From Flavipsychrobacter stenotrophus (GTDB lineage Bacteria; Bacteroidota; Bacteroidia; Chitinophagales; Chitinophagaceae), in contig CANCOG010000002.1 of the NCBI GenBank assembly GCA_947379685.1, positions 1-35,258 of the forward strand: a stretch of DNA of 35,258 nucleotides. The letters run 5' to 3'. The translations under genes and the position numbers were made by a program. Positions 1 through 8,992 of the stretch are shown one piece after another. The notes below the pieces were generated by a model that saw only the letters and a program-made list of their open reading frames with translations, ran no database searches and had not been told where the DNA came from. Position 1 is the first letter of the stretch. Each line of letters opens with the position of its first letter.

Positions 1-113
1 ACTTTTTACTTTTTACTTTTTACTTTTTACTTTTTACTTTTTACTTTTTACTTTTTACTTTTTACTTTTTACTTTTTACTTTTTACTTTTTACTTTTTAC
101 TTTTTACTTTTTT
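1..113. repeat. Heptanucleotide tandem repeat (ACTTTTT)n, at least 15 perfect units, truncated by the window edge
   Basis: Direct reading: an 'ac' occurs every 7 nt at positions 1, 8, 15 ... 106, each followed by a T5 run. The array begins immediately 3' of the paaD stop codon on the minus strand. Confidence 0.97.
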
Positions 114-612
114 AATGGCATTTGAAGTATTCAAACGGCTCCTTGCAATCCTCACATTTATACAGCGCCTTGCAAGAGGTAGGGCCAAACTGGCTCACCA
201 TGGCTGTATTGGTGGAGCCACAATGGGGACAGGGAACTGAGTCGTCCTGGAACAAATTGAGTGCATCTATCGCTTTCCGGTATGGCGGTGCAATGCCATA
301 AGCCTTAAGTTTTTCTTTTCCGTCTTCGCTCATCCAGTCGGTAGTCCAGGCAGGACTTAGCTGGTGTTCAATTTTTATTGAACTGATACCATGCCCAACC
401 AATGCCATCCTAACGCCAATGGCTATTGCATCCATTGCCGGGCAACCGCTGTAGGTGGGCGTTATGATTACAATAACTGAAGTGCTGCCGCCAGCCACAT
501 CTAACTTTACATCCCGAACAATGCCAAGGTCAAGAATAGACAAAACCGGCACTTCCGGATCCTTCACATCGGCCAGCCACGTATACACCTGTTCCTTAGT
601 TAATTCATTCAT
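112..612 (-). CDS. paaD: 1,2-phenylacetyl-CoA epoxidase subunit PaaD (MIP18/DUF59-type N-terminus, C-terminal Cys motifs)
   Basis: 166 aa. 'KDPEVPVLSILDLGIVRDV' and 'TPTYSGCPAMDAI' plus C-terminal 'CPHCGSTNT...FGPTSCKALYKCEDCKEPFEYFKCH' are typical of PaaD. Confidence 0.93.
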   Translation of the reverse strand: MNELTKEQVYTWLADVKDPEVPVLSILDLGIVRDVKLDVAGGSTSVIVIITPTYSGCPAMDAIAIGVRMALVGHGISSIKIEHQLSPAWTTDWMSEDGKEKLKAYGIAPPYRKAIDALNLFQDDSVPCPHCGSTNTAMVSQFGPTSCKALYKCEDCKEPFEYFKCH

Positions 613-623
613 ATGTCATCGCA

Positions 624-2981
624 TTAATTTCCCAGATATACAACAGGGTTGTGATTGTTTACCAGCAGACTTCCGTTTGCCTGTTTAGTAATAATTAAAG
701 CATCGGCAGGCCGAAGCATGAGTTCATCCAATGCCTCAAAAGTACGCTCTTCCGGGTGTTCCACGCTAAACCGGACAAACCGGGCCCTTTCCGGCAGCCT
801 AAAATACACATTAGCTCTCAGCCAGAGTGCTCGGGTAACATATACACCTTCCTCATGCATGTAATTATTGTCAGCACTTTCCTTGCCAAAGGCTCTGGTA
901 ACGAATATTACCTTCCTCGAGCTGTCCATGATCTCCATGAACAGGGTTGGGTTACGATAGTCATGCGATGGCACTAAAAACCAGCACGATAATTCATACA
1001 ACTGATTATCGAAGCTGGATTTAACAGACCCTTCCTTAAGTACTGAGTTCACGGTCTCGCACCACGGCAAACCAGACCTGCCAGCAAATGCAGCCTTTGA
1101 ACTCATCTCTTTATCAAAATGTTCTACAAACCAGCTGCGAGCGGCTCCAGACAAACAGGTATCACAAACTGGCAAATTGTGAGGAATTGCCAGGGTGGCT
1201 TTCTTATCCAGCTCTCTGAGCCTGGCAGGGTAAAAGGCATAAATCTGAGCATTTTGGAAATGCCCAATTGAGTCCGAAGCCTGTAGGAGGTATTGCTGAT
1301 CAGGATCTAACTCCACCCCATCCAATACAATCATCAGGAAAGGTTTGTCCGTCTTGATGTCCCTCAATATTGGCTTATTGGTGTATGGCCCGCCAACTAG
1401 TCTAACCTGTTTAAAAGCGACCTCCCACGAGGTGCGCGACATCATGGCGTCAACCATGGGTAATTGCAACTGAATGCCCGCCTGTATACCGAGTGCGACA
1501 CCCCAGGCGCTGATATTCTCGTCGCTGCATTTCCACAATTTCTCTGAGCCCACCTCAAAAAACGGCAGTACCAGTGTTGCCTGAAAATCTTCTTTCCTGT
1601 ATTTATGCTGCTCCAAAAACTGCCACCAGTGTTGCTGCCCTTTAGCAACGAAAACATCCCGGTTTTTGCGCCCGGTTTCCGCAACATTGTGGGTTCGGGC
1701 TATATACCCGCTCGCTTCAAAACTCCATAAACCCAAGGCGCCTAACAACAGAAGGTATCCTGCAAAACGCCTTCCTTTCGCGACACTTTCCGCATACCAG
1801 TGATAAATAGCGACAGCTCCGTAAATAGTAATAATGTAGTAAAATATCCAACTAAACCGCCCTATGGTCCTGAATTGCTTCAGCACAGAAACATAATTGA
1901 GCAACCATTCCATGTGCCAGATAAACGGCACGCCCATACTGAACAACAGCGAAGCGAATGCCATAAACAACCACACTCGCGGAAATGTATTTTCTTCAAC
2001 TTGATTCCCTTTCGATACCGCCATTTTACGCAGCCAAAATATGCCGGAAAAGAGCAAAGTCATGATAACAACCAGCCCCACATAAGCATTCCCTTCTCTT
2101 ACACCTACCGACTCAATTGGCCTGAATTGCCTGATGACAAAATTCCAGATGGGTGAGTGGACTGAAGTAACAACATCCTTCAGCATTGCCCGGTTTTCCA
2201 TAATGCCAAACGGAGTCACTGGCCTATCGGTTACCGGATCTGTTATCTTTATTGCAATCCCGAAAACAACAAAAAACAGCAAAACACTTAGGAGGAGCGG
2301 GAGGACGTGCCTAGCTTTCTTTATGACTGACTCCCGGACTGTTACAAAATATCCCACACCATAACAACCAACCCAAACCAGCGAAACTGCAGCATAGTAT
2401 GGATGCAGGAATGTAACCAGACAACCCATGATGAATATCCACAACAAGAATACATATCGCCGGGTCGCATGATACCGCAAAGTCCAGTAAAACAACATGG
2501 GTAAAATACATGACCACGATAATGCGTAATGACCCGATATCCTGAGCATCTGCGGGCTGCAAAGAGTAATCAAAGTAGCAAAACAAATTGCGAACAACGG
2601 CAACACCTGAAAATGGCGTAGTATTTTGTAGCAGTATACTATAGAAAGTACAAAACTCAAAGCTATAAACCACCACATTATGGCTAGCGCCTGCCCCATA
2701 GAAAGCCTGTTGTGCAAGTAGCTTAGTGGGACCGATAAAAGTGGCTGACCATCGGTATAAACTATGTGTTCGCCATAAGGGTAATTCATACCCGCAAACC
2801 ATATTCCCCGCCCGTACATTACCTGATACAAATAGGTGAAAATATTCTTGCCACCATCAGCGCCAAGCTCGGGCATTTCCTGTCCCGGATGTGTAACAAA
2901 ACCCGCAAAGGTATAAGCCACAACAACCGACGCAAAAAGTATGACCAGCAACAGCCAGATCCCGGAACTAATTTTATTCAT
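624..2981 (-). CDS. Large polytopic membrane protein, GT-C-like (putative membrane glycosyltransferase)
   Basis: Many hydrophobic helices, with an acidic/aromatic N-terminal loop 'GADGGKNIFTYLYQV...NYPYGEHIVYTDGQP'. The start is chosen at the Met at 2981 (MNKISSGIW), which overlaps the upstream GT2 stop by 8 nt (ATGAATAA). The track ORF extends to 3008. Confidence 0.75.
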   Translation of the reverse strand: MNKISSGIWLLLVILFASVVVAYTFAGFVTHPGQEMPELGADGGKNIFTYLYQVMYGRGIWFAGMNYPYGEHIVYTDGQPLLSVPLSYLHNRLSMGQALAIMWWFIALSFVLSIVYCYKILRHFQVLPLFAICFATLITLCSPQMLRISGHYALSWSCILPMLFYWTLRYHATRRYVFLLWIFIMGCLVTFLHPYYAAVSLVWVGCYGVGYFVTVRESVIKKARHVLPLLLSVLLFFVVFGIAIKITDPVTDRPVTPFGIMENRAMLKDVVTSVHSPIWNFVIRQFRPIESVGVREGNAYVGLVVIMTLLFSGIFWLRKMAVSKGNQVEENTFPRVWLFMAFASLLFSMGVPFIWHMEWLLNYVSVLKQFRTIGRFSWIFYYIITIYGAVAIYHWYAESVAKGRRFAGYLLLLGALGLWSFEASGYIARTHNVAETGRKNRDVFVAKGQQHWWQFLEQHKYRKEDFQATLVLPFFEVGSEKLWKCSDENISAWGVALGIQAGIQLQLPMVDAMMSRTSWEVAFKQVRLVGGPYTNKPILRDIKTDKPFLMIVLDGVELDPDQQYLLQASDSIGHFQNAQIYAFYPARLRELDKKATLAIPHNLPVCDTCLSGAARSWFVEHFDKEMSSKAAFAGRSGLPWCETVNSVLKEGSVKSSFDNQLYELSCWFLVPSHDYRNPTLFMEIMDSSRKVIFVTRAFGKESADNNYMHEEGVYVTRALWLRANVYFRLPERARFVRFSVEHPEERTFEALDELMLRPADALIITKQANGSLLVNNHNPVVYLGN

Positions 2982-3684
2982 GTGGCTTTTTAAACAATAG
3001 CCTGACAAAGTTGAGCAATTCGGGCAACAAAATTGAATAATTCATTTTGCGGAAATGAACTTCCTCATTCAGTGTAACCGGTACAGGGAGCACACGGTAT
3101 TTTTTTGCTGCAAAACAATTCCGCACAAACTCCAGGTCAAAAAGATACCTGTCTATATTGGTACGCAAGAATAAGGCCGCAGCGTCCTTCTTAAATCCTT
3201 TAAGTCCGCACTGGGTATCGGTAATAGGCATAGCGAGAAATACCCTTATCAAAACCCGCAGACAGCGCGAGATCAACTTTCTTGCAAAAGGTAAGTGCTG
3301 ATAATAATCCTCATCTTTTACACCTATCGCAACATCGCAGCTATTATTTTGTAAGCATTGAAAAACCGAAAACATGCTATCAATTGAATAGGGCATATCA
3401 ACATCGGTATACATAATAATTGCCCCGGTTGCAGTACGTACCCCTTCACGAATTGCAAACCCCTTCCCTCTGTTTTCCGGATATCTTACTATTCTTAACT
3501 CCTGAATTTGCGCCTGCAGCCATTGTAGATCTTCTTCTTTTACTGCTGCACTAACACCATCCAATACCAAAATCAACTCTGCTTTCACTCCTGCCATCCC
3601 GCAAAAGCTGGAATAAGCGCCAAAAATATTGCGCTCCCATCCCTGTTGAGGGTTATAACAGGGCAAAACAAGAGATAATTCCAT
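2974..3684 (-). CDS. Glycosyltransferase family 2, dolichyl-phosphate sugar transferase-like
   Basis: 'LSLVLPCYNPQQGWE', 'RGKGFAIREGVRTATGAIIMYTDVDMPY' and 'ITDTQCGLKGFKKDAA' match the GT2 DPM/ALG5-like pattern. Confidence 0.9.
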   Translation of the reverse strand: MELSLVLPCYNPQQGWERNIFGAYSSFCGMAGVKAELILVLDGVSAAVKEEDLQWLQAQIQELRIVRYPENRGKGFAIREGVRTATGAIIMYTDVDMPYSIDSMFSVFQCLQNNSCDVAIGVKDEDYYQHLPFARKLISRCLRVLIRVFLAMPITDTQCGLKGFKKDAAALFLRTNIDRYLFDLEFVRNCFAAKKYRVLPVPVTLNEEVHFRKMNYSILLPELLNFVRLLFKKPHE

Positions 3685-3734
3685 AGATGTTGCAAATTGA
3701 GCTCAAGAAGTTTAACGTAGCCAGGCGAGAATTA

Positions 3735-4547
3735 TTACCATTCCATCCCCGGATAAACCCTTTGCATGAACTGCAATTCTGTGAGTATGTAACCCAGATG
3801 TTCAGTGTGACGGCCTTCCTTGCCTCCCTTCTGCATCCAACTTCCGGCTGGCACAGCAATGGTTGCTTCATTCAAAATAGCAAGCACCCGTTCAGTCCAC
3901 TGGGCCTTTATTGGGTCCAGGTCAGGTGCTATTCCTTGTTGTTGCATTTCCAGCTCGTAAGGAGCAGCCACAAAAAATTCGCCGGTATAACTCCAGAGGT
4001 CATTTACTGCCTTTTGCAATTTATCGTGACTTTCATCTGTACCATCACCAAGCCTTATCATCCATTCGCTACTCCACCGAAGGTGGTAAGTAACCTCCTT
4101 AAGTGATTTTTCTGCAATGGCAGCAAGCGTGGAATCTGTGCTTTTCTCTAAAGCAGTATAATAGAAGAAATGAAATGTATCCAGAAAAAAAGCTCGTGTA
4201 ACCGTATATGCCCAATCAATGTTTGGATGTTCAGTAAGCAATACATTCTTAAAATCCCAGCCATCGCGGAGGTAAGCCAAACTATCTTCATTCAGGGGGG
4301 TACCCGCTTTCACCAGATTTTGAATAGCTACAGAAGTAATCGTTTCCCCTTTTTCTTGCACTGTCAGTTGGTTAAACAACTCCGCCGCATATTGGTAAAG
4401 ACTACGCGCACGCCCTAAATGATCGAGGGCTGTGTTAGTAAGTGCAATATCCTGTTCCAGTATTGGCCCGTGGCCGCACCATTCACTTAAACGGTGTCCG
4501 GTAATCAATGCATCATCAGCCAGGCGAAGTATGTAAGATAATTTCAT
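3735..4547 (-). CDS. paaC: 1,2-phenylacetyl-CoA epoxidase subunit PaaC
   Basis: 'LADDALITGHRLSEWCGHGPILEQDIALTNTALDHLGRARSLYQYAA' is typical of PaaC. The start is taken at MKLSYIL rather than the upstream Met at 4571. Confidence 0.93.
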   Translation of the reverse strand: MKLSYILRLADDALITGHRLSEWCGHGPILEQDIALTNTALDHLGRARSLYQYAAELFNQLTVQEKGETITSVAIQNLVKAGTPLNEDSLAYLRDGWDFKNVLLTEHPNIDWAYTVTRAFFLDTFHFFYYTALEKSTDSTLAAIAEKSLKEVTYHLRWSSEWMIRLGDGTDESHDKLQKAVNDLWSYTGEFFVAAPYELEMQQQGIAPDLDPIKAQWTERVLAILNEATIAVPAGSWMQKGGKEGRHTEHLGYILTELQFMQRVYPGMEW

Positions 4548-4596
4548 TCTATTGTAACAATTAAAAGTCAAACCACAAATTGGCTTGATCCGGGCT

Positions 4597-4604
4597 CAAA
4601 AGTA
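4597..4604 (-). promoter_or_regulatory. Candidate Bacteroidota -7 element TACTTTTG upstream of paaC
   Basis: Reverse complement of 'caaaagta' matches TAnnTTTG and lies about 50 bp upstream of the paaC ATG. No convincing -33 element was found. Confidence 0.35.
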
Positions 4605-4629
4605 TAAAATCAATGTGGTAAAACCCTAG

Positions 4630-4710
4630 GTTCCATCAGTCATTGTTACTACCGAACATTTATCAGCCAATTTTACCAGTCGCCGATTCCGCAAATCCAC
4701 CTGATGGAAC
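4630..4710. repeat. 10-bp inverted repeat GTTCCATCAG / CTGATGGAAC (4630-4639 and 4701-4710) upstream of paaC
   Basis: The arms are perfect reverse complements separated by 61 nt. Confidence 0.6.
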
Positions 4711-4736
4711 TAGTATAAATTTAGTGCACACCGGCA

Positions 4737-7223
4737 TCATTGCACTTCTTTAATTATCTGTTCCGCAATTACCGCGCTTTGGGCGGGCTCAATCAATTCA
4801 ATATGGCCACTCCTTACGTTAACCAACTTAAAACGGCCGGACGAGTACTTTCGCCAGTTATAACCGTGCCGCAAATAAGCAGGACAACTCCTTGTTGCTC
4901 GAATAAATAAACAAGCATGCGTTGCCGTTTTGTCTTTAGATGATGCACTAATAAAGTGGTGATAGAGATGAACCGACGGCTTTGCCGAAGAAGGGGAGAC
5001 TTCAATTTGCCTGGATTTTAAACCGAGAAATTTCTTACTTATAAAATCGCGCATGATACCGGGGTCTAATGAGACAATGGAATTGCCCATTATTGAAGCC
5101 CAATTTGTAAGTGAAGAACGGCTACCGGAGTAAAGATTCATTTCGTAATAATTGTATGTATCCAACATTACACACAACCTTACACCGTCAACCTTCTTTG
5201 CCAGTTCATGAGCAATCAACCCCTGGACGCTTAAACCGAGCAAAACCGCCTGCTGGCTATTTTCCTGTTTCCGGACCAAGCTGCCCAGTTCTTCAAGAAG
5301 TCCAATTGCCCCCATTGAATCCTTAACGCTCTCCAAATCAAATAGCAGATGAAAAATATTGTATTGATTTTCAATTTTCCGAATGATATACCTATAATCA
5401 TTTCCACCCTGAAAAGTGTTCAAAAAATATAAATTTCTTCGTCCTGCAACAAATCCATTCGCAGGTATACATGATGGCTTTTGATCCCCGATACCCGTAC
5501 TTAGAAATTCAGCTATTCGCTCAGGGGTCTCGTAAGCCCAAATGCAATGAGCAGGCAATTTAACGTTCAAACAGGCCTCCAGTTCTGCAATTGCAACAAG
5601 CCCCAAAAGCGAGTCGCCACCAAAATCATTAAAAAAAGACCCTGACTTAAAAATATTTTGTACCCCAAGTACACTTGCAAATACCTGCATGATCGTGCTT
5701 TCCAATACAGATGCGGGTAACTGGTCGTTTAATGAAGCCGTGGCAAGATTCGTAAAGGAAGCTATTTCCAGGCTTTTCCGGTCCACCTTCCCTGAATGCG
5801 TTTGTGGGAAGTGCTCCAATACACTATAAAAATTCGGATAATGCCCAACCGGTAACCTATTTTTCAAGAACTCATTGATTGCCCTTGGGTTAAGTTGCTG
5901 GTCAGATGTTTGGATAAAGGCAACAATTGCATTCGTTCCCGATTGAGTATTGTTAACTACTACAGCAACTCTGGTAATGCCTGGCATTATTGCCAATTCC
6001 TGTTCTACCAGTCCGAGATCAACCTTTACACCATTTACTTTTATTTCATTTGTTTTTCTGCCCTTCAAAAATAGCTCACCTGCGTCATTGAGATAGCCAA
6101 GGTCACCACTTCTGTAAGTTACCATTGCCCCGTTTACACTAAAGGCATCCTTCTTGGCAGCACTATTCCCAACATATTCTCCAGCAATATATTCCGACTC
6201 AACCACTATCTCGCCAATTTCATTGGCACTCATTTGTCGCCCATCATCTGCAACTATGGAAATTAGCTTATTACCTACTGCTACTCCGGCCGCCCCATTG
6301 TATGCAGAAATTTCAGCCCGGTCCTTTAAATGAACTTTTGCTATTGTCCTTGTTTCGGTGCTGGCGTAGGCTAATTGTAAAAGCGTTGATTCTGGAAATT
6401 TAGCGCAAAACAGCTCAATGGTCCCAGAATTTATCGGCTCGGCACTTAGAGACAAAAATCTCATTAACTGGAGCTGCTTTAATGACTCATTCACTTTACA
6501 GACTGCTAAAAACGCTGAGACAGAAACATTGGAAACGGTTACTCCGCGTTCCTCCCAAAAGGAGGCGAGTGCCCCTACCCCTTCCTTCCTTAGCGAGAAA
6601 ATACATAGTTGAGCACCAGACACCAAGGCCGGAAAAATACATGCGAGGGATGCACTAAAGGAAAGAGAAAAAACCAGATCAATTACATCATTCTCCGCGA
6701 TATTGTTTTCAGCAATTTGCCTGAGTGTATCAGAATTGATGGTTTTATAATTGTGGGCTATAATTTTCGAAACTCCGCTGGTACCAGAAGTTATGAACAT
6801 ACAAAAGCGCTGTAGTTCCAGGCACCTAAAATCGATCGGTACATAATTATCCGGCACCTCAATTTCGTCAATGCAAATGTCCGGCACCCCGGCGCTGGTC
6901 CTTTTTTTACTGCCCTTGCTGAGCAGACTAAATTTTATTGAAACAGGAAAATCCTCCCCGATATAGTATGCGTTTTCTTCAGTAACAGAGAGGTAATAAT
7001 TACCCGACAAAACAATACCGATCATTGCAACAATATGGTCTATACCGGCATCGATTTCAATAGCTATACACTCTCGATCAATTCCCTTTTGCTGAAAATA
7101 ACCTGCAATTGCTCTTGCACGCTTTCCCAATTCGCCATAGGTTATCGTTTCACCGCTATTATATACTGCTGTCTTTTCCGAAAAGGTATCAAAAGTGGCA
7201 AGCAGCCTATCCATTATACTCAT
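4737..7223 (-). CDS. NRPS-like protein: adenylation domain, PCP and type I thioesterase
   Basis: A3-like 'FITSGTSGVSKIIAHN', A7 'YRSGDLGYLNDAGELFLKGR', A10 'SGKVDRK'. PCP 'DFGGDSLLGL'. TE GxSxxG motif 'LLGLSVQGLIAHELA' with downstream 'VMLDTY' and 'SGHIELIEP'. The exact start is ambiguous (7244, 7223 or 7214). Confidence 0.92.
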   Translation of the reverse strand: MSIMDRLLATFDTFSEKTAVYNSGETITYGELGKRARAIAGYFQQKGIDRECIAIEIDAGIDHIVAMIGIVLSGNYYLSVTEENAYYIGEDFPVSIKFSLLSKGSKKRTSAGVPDICIDEIEVPDNYVPIDFRCLELQRFCMFITSGTSGVSKIIAHNYKTINSDTLRQIAENNIAENDVIDLVFSLSFSASLACIFPALVSGAQLCIFSLRKEGVGALASFWEERGVTVSNVSVSAFLAVCKVNESLKQLQLMRFLSLSAEPINSGTIELFCAKFPESTLLQLAYASTETRTIAKVHLKDRAEISAYNGAAGVAVGNKLISIVADDGRQMSANEIGEIVVESEYIAGEYVGNSAAKKDAFSVNGAMVTYRSGDLGYLNDAGELFLKGRKTNEIKVNGVKVDLGLVEQELAIMPGITRVAVVVNNTQSGTNAIVAFIQTSDQQLNPRAINEFLKNRLPVGHYPNFYSVLEHFPQTHSGKVDRKSLEIASFTNLATASLNDQLPASVLESTIMQVFASVLGVQNIFKSGSFFNDFGGDSLLGLVAIAELEACLNVKLPAHCIWAYETPERIAEFLSTGIGDQKPSCIPANGFVAGRRNLYFLNTFQGGNDYRYIIRKIENQYNIFHLLFDLESVKDSMGAIGLLEELGSLVRKQENSQQAVLLGLSVQGLIAHELAKKVDGVRLCVMLDTYNYYEMNLYSGSRSSLTNWASIMGNSIVSLDPGIMRDFISKKFLGLKSRQIEVSPSSAKPSVHLYHHFISASSKDKTATHACLFIRATRSCPAYLRHGYNWRKYSSGRFKLVNVRSGHIELIEPAQSAVIAEQIIKEVQ

Positions 7224-7983
7224 AAACATCGTATGCTTTGGCAATATCCATATTGATACTCAGCATATTCCTTACGCTGATACTGTCTTTATACGCCGAC
7301 GAATATATAGCTTTTAAATTGGTATCCTTTAGTGAATGTTTTATTCGCTGCAACATGCTGTGCTTATGAAATTGCTGACTTCTGAATTCTTTCAGGATAG
7401 CCCCGCCTGCCAGCAGATAGTCATCTCCGTCTTTGTAAAGAACATTAACCCCGGCATTCAGACCATGTTTTACCACGAGGAAAAGATCTAACCCCTCAAC
7501 ACCCAAAAGCTGCCTGAAATTCTGCTCCACCTTCCTGTAGTCTTCTTGTTCCGACTCAAAACTCTTGAGGTAAGCACATGTGAAGTCATAAATATTGTGG
7601 TCTTCTACACGTACCAGTTCCACCTTACTTCCATCACTATTCTTTACTGGCTCATTTATCGGAAAACTTGTCTTAACTATAGTCTTTGTGTACTCGTAGC
7701 CAAATTCCCTGCACAGCAATTCTTTACTCTCTTCGCAACCCGCCAAAACAATAATTTTGTGCGTTTTCACATCCCCTTCCCGGTAAAAGTCAATAACCGA
7801 ATCTACCTGTATTTTGCTGAGTGGTTTGCTCGCCGGGGAAAATGAATAATTAAAATAACCTACTTCTGGAAACATTAATTTCGTGACCCCGTCGTTATCA
7901 GAGATATCTATACGGTTATCGTACATTTCGTTACGCGAATATGCCCTTAGCCGCTCGATGTCGTACTTGAAAACGATTTCCAT
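7207..7983 (-). CDS. GNAT-fold-like acyltransferase, probable
   Basis: 258 aa. The C-terminal region 'LFLVVKHGLNAGVNVLYKDGDDYLLAGGAILKEFRSQQFHKHSMLQRIKHSLKDTNLKAIYSSAYKDSISVRNMLSINM' reads like the GNAT beta4-beta5/alpha core. It overlaps the start of the NRPS-like gene. Confidence 0.55.
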   Translation of the reverse strand: MEIVFKYDIERLRAYSRNEMYDNRIDISDNDGVTKLMFPEVGYFNYSFSPASKPLSKIQVDSVIDFYREGDVKTHKIIVLAGCEESKELLCREFGYEYTKTIVKTSFPINEPVKNSDGSKVELVRVEDHNIYDFTCAYLKSFESEQEDYRKVEQNFRQLLGVEGLDLFLVVKHGLNAGVNVLYKDGDDYLLAGGAILKEFRSQQFHKHSMLQRIKHSLKDTNLKAIYSSAYKDSISVRNMLSINMDIAKAYDVYEYNG

Positions 7984-8115
7984 AAATTACTTTTTCTCAA
8001 AAATAATTTACGAAAAATTAAAATTCTATTAAAGCAAATGAAGTTGCAATTCTGTGACAACTATACCGAACATAAAATTTTCACTTATGCGTCAAATATA
8101 AAAGCTCTAATGCGC

Positions 8116-8973
8116 CTATTTTTTTGCAAAATCCCTCCCCATTATGGTCCAGTCTTTTTTTGAATCACCGTCAGCGATGTGCTGGTCCATGACACGGGCA
8201 ACAATCTCCAAATGTTCAAGCGTTACCCCTTTCTCCTTTGCTTCAGTCAGCATTAAAGCAACATCCTTTCTGGCCATTTGCAGTTCCCAGGCAACCACCT
8301 CAAAGTTTCCCGCAGTTATTTTCCCAATACGGGACGGCAAGACTGCTCCGGGATTCCATCCTCCGGTAAACAAATCACTTATGAGCCCCGGTTCTACGCC
8401 CAGACTGGTGCCTAAATTTAGTGCCTCAAATAGTGCGGCATTCATGCCAATAATATAGTGGTTTCGCACGAGCTTTACAGCGGCAGCCTTTCCTGTAACA
8501 GGGCCATAGTTTACTACCTTACCTGTCATCTTTTGCAACTCCGGCTGCCATTTATCTATGACATCCTGATCGCCTGACAACAGCATAGATCCTTCACAGG
8601 CCAGTGCATTTTCAGGGCTCATGAAAACAGGGGCATGCAAATAACAAAAGCCTCTTCCCTTCCAGATTCCGGTCCTGTCAATCGCACCTTGAGTAGAAGT
8701 GGTCGTGTGGTCAATTATCGTTGCGCCTGGTTCTAAAGCACTTTGAATACACTCCAGTAGTTCATCGACCGACGCGTCATCTTTCAGCACGATATGTATT
8801 CTATCTGCCCCAATTACCGCACTTTGGGCATCGCGAAAAGCACGGGCTCCATAAGGCTCAAGCGCCTGAGCCTTTTCATAAGTCCGGTTCCATACGGCAA
8901 GGGCGTTACCACATTGCAGTAACGCCCTTGCCATATTACTTCCTAAATACCCCGTTCCTAAAAATGCTATCAT
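8116..8973 (-). CDS. NAD(P)-dependent oxidoreductase, 6PGDH/3-hydroxyisobutyrate dehydrogenase-like
   Basis: 'MIAFLGTGYLGSNMARALLQCGNALAVWNRT' Rossmann motif; 'HAPVFMSPENA'; 'GKAAAVKLVRNHYIIGMNAALFEAL' catalytic Lys region. Confidence 0.9.
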   Translation of the reverse strand: MIAFLGTGYLGSNMARALLQCGNALAVWNRTYEKAQALEPYGARAFRDAQSAVIGADRIHIVLKDDASVDELLECIQSALEPGATIIDHTTTSTQGAIDRTGIWKGRGFCYLHAPVFMSPENALACEGSMLLSGDQDVIDKWQPELQKMTGKVVNYGPVTGKAAAVKLVRNHYIIGMNAALFEALNLGTSLGVEPGLISDLFTGGWNPGAVLPSRIGKITAGNFEVVAWELQMARKDVALMLTEAKEKGVTLEHLEIVARVMDQHIADGDSKKDWTIMGRDFAKK

Positions 8974-8992
8974 AAACAGCAGCTATGGGTAA

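What the first reader, a model, noticed from the sequence alone, without database searches (positions are those of the whole stretch)
4737..7223. Single-module A-PCP-TE enzyme whose adenylation domain lacks the canonical Asp235
Aligning 'LSFSASLACIFPALVSGA' with the GrsA A4 region 'ISFDASVWEMFMALLTGA' puts Ser where alpha-amino-acid-activating domains carry Asp235, and Ala where GrsA has Trp239. The A10 Lys motif (SGKVDRK), PCP Ser (GGDSL) and TE GxSxxG are intact, so the enzyme looks functional. Loss of Asp235 usually means a non-alpha-amino-acid substrate (aryl, hydroxy, keto or fatty acid, beta-amino acid). The A5 motif is also atypical (LAYASTETRT). With no condensation domain, this could be a minimal loader/releaser of an unusual acid.
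Basis: partly seen in the sequence, partly recalled or inferred. Interest (0 to 1): 0.62.

Follow-up and report, generated by a model that had tools for sequence, protein, structure and literature searches.

The report
Two-gene acyltransferase plus mini-peptide-synthetase cassette
A bacterium carries a short peptide-synthetase-like enzyme, overlapped with a small acyltransferase gene, whose substrate pocket has consistently lost the acidic residue that grips ordinary amino acids, so the pair probably makes a small molecule from an unusual or amine-masked acid.

Summary
Ser190 occupies the Asp235 position, Ala194 the Trp239 position, and the A10 Lys, PCP Ser and TE triad are intact. I found 22 members, mostly Bacteroidota plus one Verrucomicrobia MAG. 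Ser at 235 is invariant in 22/22, against Asp in 41/43 control A domains. In 18 of 22 loci, the window included, a ~255-aa tandem-GNAT-fold acyltransferase gene lies directly upstream and, in nearly all, overlaps the synthetase start. In the window's genus the pair fills a gap between secA and a paaC paralogue that is 325 bp in a congener, so it looks like a moving two-gene cassette.

Most likely working: the A domain adenylates a carboxylic acid lacking a free alpha-ammonium group and loads it on the PCP. The TE offloads it onto an acceptor or by cyclisation/dimerisation. The GNAT acylates an amine in substrate or product. Substrate and product are unknown and could not be tested here. New variant of a known kind (NRPS-like A-PCP-TE), moderately interesting.

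The parts
4737..7223 (-). A-PCP-TE enzyme, 828 aa (ATG 7223; upstream TTG 7244 and ATG 7229 less likely because homologues start at the ATG-7223 position)
5754..7223 (-). Adenylation domain (residues 1-490)
   Evidence: Pfam AMP-binding and AMP-binding_C; TIGR01733 amino acid adenylation domain best NCBIfam match but far below its cut-off, 145.7 vs 317.4 bits
6654..6656 (-). Ser190 at the Asp235 position of alpha-amino-acid A domains
   Evidence: ungapped alignment with EntF; Ser in 22/22 family members vs Asp in 41/43 controls
6348..6350 (-). Arg292 in the A5/beta13-beta14 loop (YASTETRT), invariant in the family
5787..5789 (-). Lys479, A10 lysine (Lys517 equivalent)
   Evidence: 22/22
5490..5711 (-). 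Peptidyl carrier protein domain (about residues 505-578)
   Evidence: PF00550 at residues 510-574; attachment Ser538 at 5610-5612, 22/22
4740..5456 (-). Type-I thioesterase domain (about residues 590-828), triad Ser665 (5229-5231), Asp688 (5160-5162), His807 (4803-4805)
   Evidence: alignment to EntF TE; 21/21 conserved; alternating strands and helices as in alpha/beta hydrolases
7207..7983 (-). Partner gene: 258-aa tandem-GNAT-fold acyltransferase, overlapping the A-PCP-TE start by 17 nt
   Evidence: conserved upstream in 18/22 loci; overlap 11/14/17 nt in 16 of 18; model pLDDT 93.5, Foldseek hits tandem GNATs; Acetyltransf_1 matches 11/18 members
8116..8973 (-). 3-hydroxyisobutyrate-dehydrogenase-family gene in the same insertion; not a conserved partner elsewhere
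   Evidence: absent from gene families shared between other loci
4572..8992 (.). Inserted segment between secA and the paaC paralogue (4421 bp here; 325 bp in congener G004)

Best explanation
A mobile two-gene biosynthetic cassette. The A domain of the A-PCP-TE enzyme adenylates a carboxylic acid that offers no free alpha-ammonium group and loads it on its own PCP; such an acid could be an N-acylated amino acid, or a hydroxy, keto or other acid. With no condensation domain, the TE forms the product-releasing bond itself, by transfer to an acceptor nucleophile, cyclisation or dimerisation. The overlapping tandem-GNAT gene product acylates an amine in the same small pathway: either the substrate before activation, which would explain why the Asp is not needed, or the released product. 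Shown: domain order, conserved catalytic residues, family-wide Ser235, conserved gene pair, overlap, insertion in the genus. Inferred: substrate class, TE chemistry, the order of GNAT and A-domain steps.
For: Ser235 invariant in 22/22 members against Asp in 41/43 controls; family monophyletic at 100/100 in a 65-sequence A-domain tree. All catalytic residues of A, PCP and TE are kept over deep divergence, down to 27-43% identity. Mapped pocket positions are small (window code S-A-A-N-S-S-A-T-I-K), with Trp239 replaced by Ala/Ser/Gly, which argues for a roomy pocket (read). GNAT gene upstream in 18/22 loci with 11-17 nt overlap in 16 of them. The GNAT and synthetase trees share their main groups. 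No other partner is shared widely. PPTase candidates exist in the genome. Gap of 325 bp at the same site in congener G004.
Against: No substrate, product or activity is known. McyG lacks the Asp and yet binds Phe (PMC11253843), so Asp loss alone does not prove a non-amino acid. The structure model is weak exactly at residues 133-194, the A3-A4 region, so the pocket rests on sequence alignment. Four members lack the GNAT, including all three congeners of the window that have the synthetase, so it is not strictly required, or its role has been replaced there.
Confidence: 0.6

Rival explanations
1. A bacterial relative, by function, of the quinone/furanone synthetases (A-T-TE): the A domain loads an alpha-keto acid such as an aryl-pyruvate, and the TE joins two of them by Claisen-type condensation.
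For: Same A-T-TE layout without a condensation domain, and lack of Asp235. Loss of the A5 Pro parallels the alpha-keto acid domain StsA (PMC11253843). Single-enzyme logic needs no partner, which fits the four loci without GNAT.
Against: Keto-acid domains carry Val or Ile at 235 (PMC10316625, PMC11253843); this family carries Ser in 22/22. A conserved GNAT has no place in that chemistry. Direct tree placement against RalA, EchA or the fungal enzymes was not done.
Confidence: 0.15
2. The A domain still activates an ordinary or slightly modified alpha-amino acid by another contact; the GNAT is a self-protection or tailoring acetyltransferase acting on the released product.
For: The A domain lies among NRPS A domains, and the best named family is amino-acid adenylation. 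McyG binds Phe without the Asp (PMC11253843). Foldseek lists PamZ, from my own knowledge a self-resistance acetyltransferase of the paenilamicin pathway, among the GNAT hits.
Against: Asp is replaced in every member, not just a few, together with the A5 Gly-Pro. No family-specific acidic residue falls at a mapped pocket position; Asp182 is invariant but eight residues upstream.
Confidence: 0.2
3. Supply of an activated acyl group to surface polysaccharide: the enzyme loads an acid and the TE, or a partner transferase, passes it to an amino sugar.
For: Two of the three GNAT-less congener copies sit in polysaccharide gene surroundings: two glycosyltransferases, an O-antigen-ligase-family gene and a nucleotidyltransferase in one; a DegT aminotransferase and dTDP-sugar epimerase in the other.
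Against: Most other loci have no sugar genes evident beside the pair (not every neighbour was annotated). In the window the nearby GT2 belongs to the genus-wide secA-paaC2-GT2-membrane protein-paaD block, present in congeners G003, G004 and G006 without the cassette.
Confidence: 0.1

Closest known systems
Terminal NRPS modules C-A-PCP-TE (EntF, SrfA-C, AB3403)
   Same: A, PCP and TE domains homologous and in the same order; TE triad and A10 Lys kept
   Different: No condensation domain, Ser instead of Asp235, A5 YA[ST]TE instead of YGPTE, GNAT partner
Quinone/furanone synthetases (fungal AtrA/NPS3, CorA, PpaA1; bacterial RalA, EchA)
   Same: A-T-TE layout, Asp235 replaced
   Different: Val (PMC10316625) versus Ser at the first code position; conserved GNAT partner here; no direct sequence comparison was made
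Aryl-acid ligases (EntE, DhbE)
   Same: Lack Asp235
   Different: Stand-alone enzymes; Asn at 235 in DhbE and a distinct A5 (PMC11253843; EntE reads FGMAEG); EntE matches the family far worse than EntF and is the outlier in the tree
Tandem-GNAT acyltransferases (VipF, MshD, 2wpw from the clavulanic acid pathway, PamZ, 3frm)
   Same: Predicted fold over nearly the whole length
   Different: 9-12% identity; the acetyl-CoA loop reads R-x-x-x-x-H, not RxxGxG/A; substrate unknown

Membership tests
Alpha-amino-acid-activating NRPS A domain | Asp at position 235 | tested here: not met
   Ser in 22/22 members; Asp in 41/43 controls
Alpha-amino-acid-activating NRPS A domain | Lys517 in A10 | tested here: met
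   K479, 22/22
Alpha-amino-acid-activating NRPS A domain | A5 motif NxYGPTE | tested here: not met
   YA[ST]TE in nearly all
NRPS-like A-PCP-TE enzyme | A, PCP and TE in one chain with catalytic residues, no C domain | tested here: met
   no Condensation domain in the genome
Quinone/furanone synthetase | Val at first code position | tested here: not met
   Ser; criterion from PMC10316625
Quinone/furanone synthetase | Claisen dimerisation of two keto acids by the TE | not testable with these tools
   needs enzyme assay
Quinone/furanone synthetase | Common clade with RalA/EchA or the fungal enzymes | not tested
Aryl-acid A domain (EntE/DhbE) | Asn at 235 (DhbE) and the aryl-type A5 (MAEG) | tested here: not met
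GNAT superfamily (partner gene) | GNAT fold | tested here: met
   model pLDDT 93.5; 269 PDB hits at E<=0.001, those at the top of the list GNATs; Acetyltransf_1 in 11/18 members
GNAT superfamily (partner gene) | RxxGxG/A acetyl-CoA loop | tested here: inconclusive
   R201 and H206 invariant, Gly204 only in part of the members and absent in the window, third position always His

The most novel reading that the evidence does not exclude
A 'mask then activate' two-gene NRPS. The tandem GNAT first N-acylates an amino acid, the Ser235 A domain activates that amine-masked acid, and the TE offloads it as an ester, amide or ring. This would be an NRPS-like route in which loss of Asp235 is explained by the partner gene, spread as a compact cassette.
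Probability: 0.2. Interest if true: 0.72.

Novelty: new variant of a known kind. Interest (0 to 1): 0.5.

Why it matters
It defines a small, coherent family of NRPS-like enzymes with a fixed non-canonical specificity position and a nearly fixed acyltransferase partner, in genomes where routine code-based prediction would likely fail. Only two proteins are needed, so the question of what a Ser235 A domain activates, and what a TE does without a condensation domain, becomes directly testable in vitro.

Tried and rejected
PADLOC: no match, so not filed as defence. First genome-contig scan with the single protein found nothing; the alignment-based scan found 30 loci. The weaker hits of the family and phylum scans (E 1e-60 to 1e-75; longer NRPS frames) and the stand-alone Clostridia-type enzymes (L066-L075) were used as controls, not counted as members. 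Literature searches for A-PCP-TE plus GNAT found no description; only an open-licence library was searched. Substrate prediction from the 10-residue code was not pushed: the AlphaFold model is under pLDDT 50 at residues 133-194 and no coordinates were available for superposition. A functional link to the adjacent paaC paralogue and GT2 was rejected because those genes form a genus-wide block present without the cassette.

Full report
What is there. The minus strand of window:4737-7223 encodes 828 aa. Pfam finds an adenylation domain, its C-terminal subdomain and a carrier domain. The last 240 residues hit no Pfam TE model even at E<=10, but EntF of E. coli aligns to the family profile from A through PCP to TE with 206 bits, and Foldseek ranks the A-PCP-TE modules AB3403, SrfA-C and EntF first.

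The Asp235 claim. EntF Asp (SFDVSVW) falls on Ser190 (LSFSASLAC) without gaps, and EntF Trp239 on Ala194. Mapped by eye onto these alignments, the window's ten-position code reads S-A-A-N-S-S-A-T-I-K. In 22 homologues position 235 is always Ser; in 43 control A domains taken from related genomes, Clostridia and E. coli it is Asp in 41, the exceptions being EntE and one stand-alone enzyme (L068). The controls are the best A-domain hits to the family profile in loci fetched here, so they are not a random sample. A5 is YA[ST]TE-TRT rather than YGPTE, with an invariant Arg292. A 2024 review reports Gly/Ala/Val/Ile at 235 for hydroxy and keto acids, Asn for the aryl-acid domain DhbE, and Pro-to-Met in A5 of a keto-acid domain, but also McyG, which binds Phe with Val there (PMC11253843). 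The inference 'no free alpha-amine' is therefore likely, not proven.

A family, not a one-off. Three of ten congeners carry a 38-43% identical full-length copy. A wider search added Limnovirga, seven Larkinella, two Algoriphagus, several Bacteroidota MAGs and one Verrucomicrobia MAG; the last is a 15.8-kb contig of a MAG and could be a binning error. True members are rare: 4 of 299 family genomes and 3 of 396 phylum genomes, own genome included, at E below 1e-150. The 22 members form one clade with 100/100 support. K479 and PCP Ser538 are kept in 22/22, TE Ser665/Asp688/His807 in 21/21; the 22nd (L050) has its frame split.

The partner. A 258-aa gene (7207-7983, minus) overlaps the synthetase start by 17 nt. 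Its homologue lies directly upstream in 18 of 22 loci, overlapping by 11, 14 or 17 nt in 16 of them, always in the same frame relation; in the other two (L049, L063) the synthetase start is uncertain. The window protein alone has no Pfam GNAT hit, but 11 of 18 family members hit Acetyltransf_1, and the AlphaFold model (pLDDT 93.5) matches tandem GNATs such as VipF, 3frm, MshD, 2wpw and PamZ. The partner and synthetase trees share their main groups, though several forks of the GNAT tree are open. The partner is missing from L046, L047, L051 (the window's congeners) and L058, and from the whole genomes G007, G008 and G009; in the tree the congeners nest inside GNAT-bearing lineages, so loss is the simpler reading.

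Insertion. In congeners G003, G004 and G006 the order is secA, paaC paralogue, GT2, membrane protein, paaD, with gaps between secA and paaC of 1476, 325 and 994 bp; in the window this gap is 4421 bp and holds a dehydrogenase, the GNAT and the synthetase. The surroundings of members differ between genera. This pattern indicates a cassette that moves; no transposase or repeat was looked for at the ends, so the vehicle is unknown.

Mechanism. Two candidate PPTases exist in the genome, so the carrier can be armed. With no condensation domain found in the genome, the TE must do the bond-forming step if there is one. A GNAT partner suggests amine acylation somewhere in the path. The economical reading is that the amine is masked before activation, which would make Asp235 useless; the alternative is acylation of the product. 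I put the general scheme at 0.6 and the mask-first order at 0.2.

Verdict. Observation confirmed; interpretation partly supported; a new variant of NRPS-like A-PCP-TE enzymes with a conserved acyltransferase partner that appears undescribed in the literature I could search. Interest 0.5.

Noticed in passing
window 8116-8973 (-) and G000:C584:3206-3577: 3-hydroxyisobutyrate-dehydrogenase-family gene inserted with the cassette; the own genome has a second, partial match elsewhere, and eight of nine other genomes of the genus listed have one match each, in G003, G007, G008 and G009 seen at another site. It might make a hydroxy acid, but it is not conserved with the pair.
   Followed up: partly
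window 112-4571 (-): Genus-wide block paaC paralogue, GT2, 794-aa membrane protein without Pfam match, paaD; the genome has a second paaC-like gene on contig C443. Why a glycosyltransferase gene sits inside a paa-like block is unexplained.
   Followed up: partly
between secA and the paaC paralogue in G003, G004, G006 and the window: The interval differs in content between congeners (two small genes, none, one small gene, or the cassette), like a small insertion hotspot.
   Followed up: partly
L068:9992-11509 (+): Stand-alone A-domain enzyme with FSMS at the Asp235 position, outside the family clade.
   Followed up: no
L045:10458-12910 (+): ABC transporter ATPase and permease genes directly downstream of the synthetase in G549; several Larkinella loci have a convergent MFS transporter gene instead. 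Possible export of the product.
   Followed up: partly
L050:4519-7034 (+): Synthetase reading frame split into 581 and 232 aa pieces; real frameshift or assembly error not resolved.
   Followed up: no
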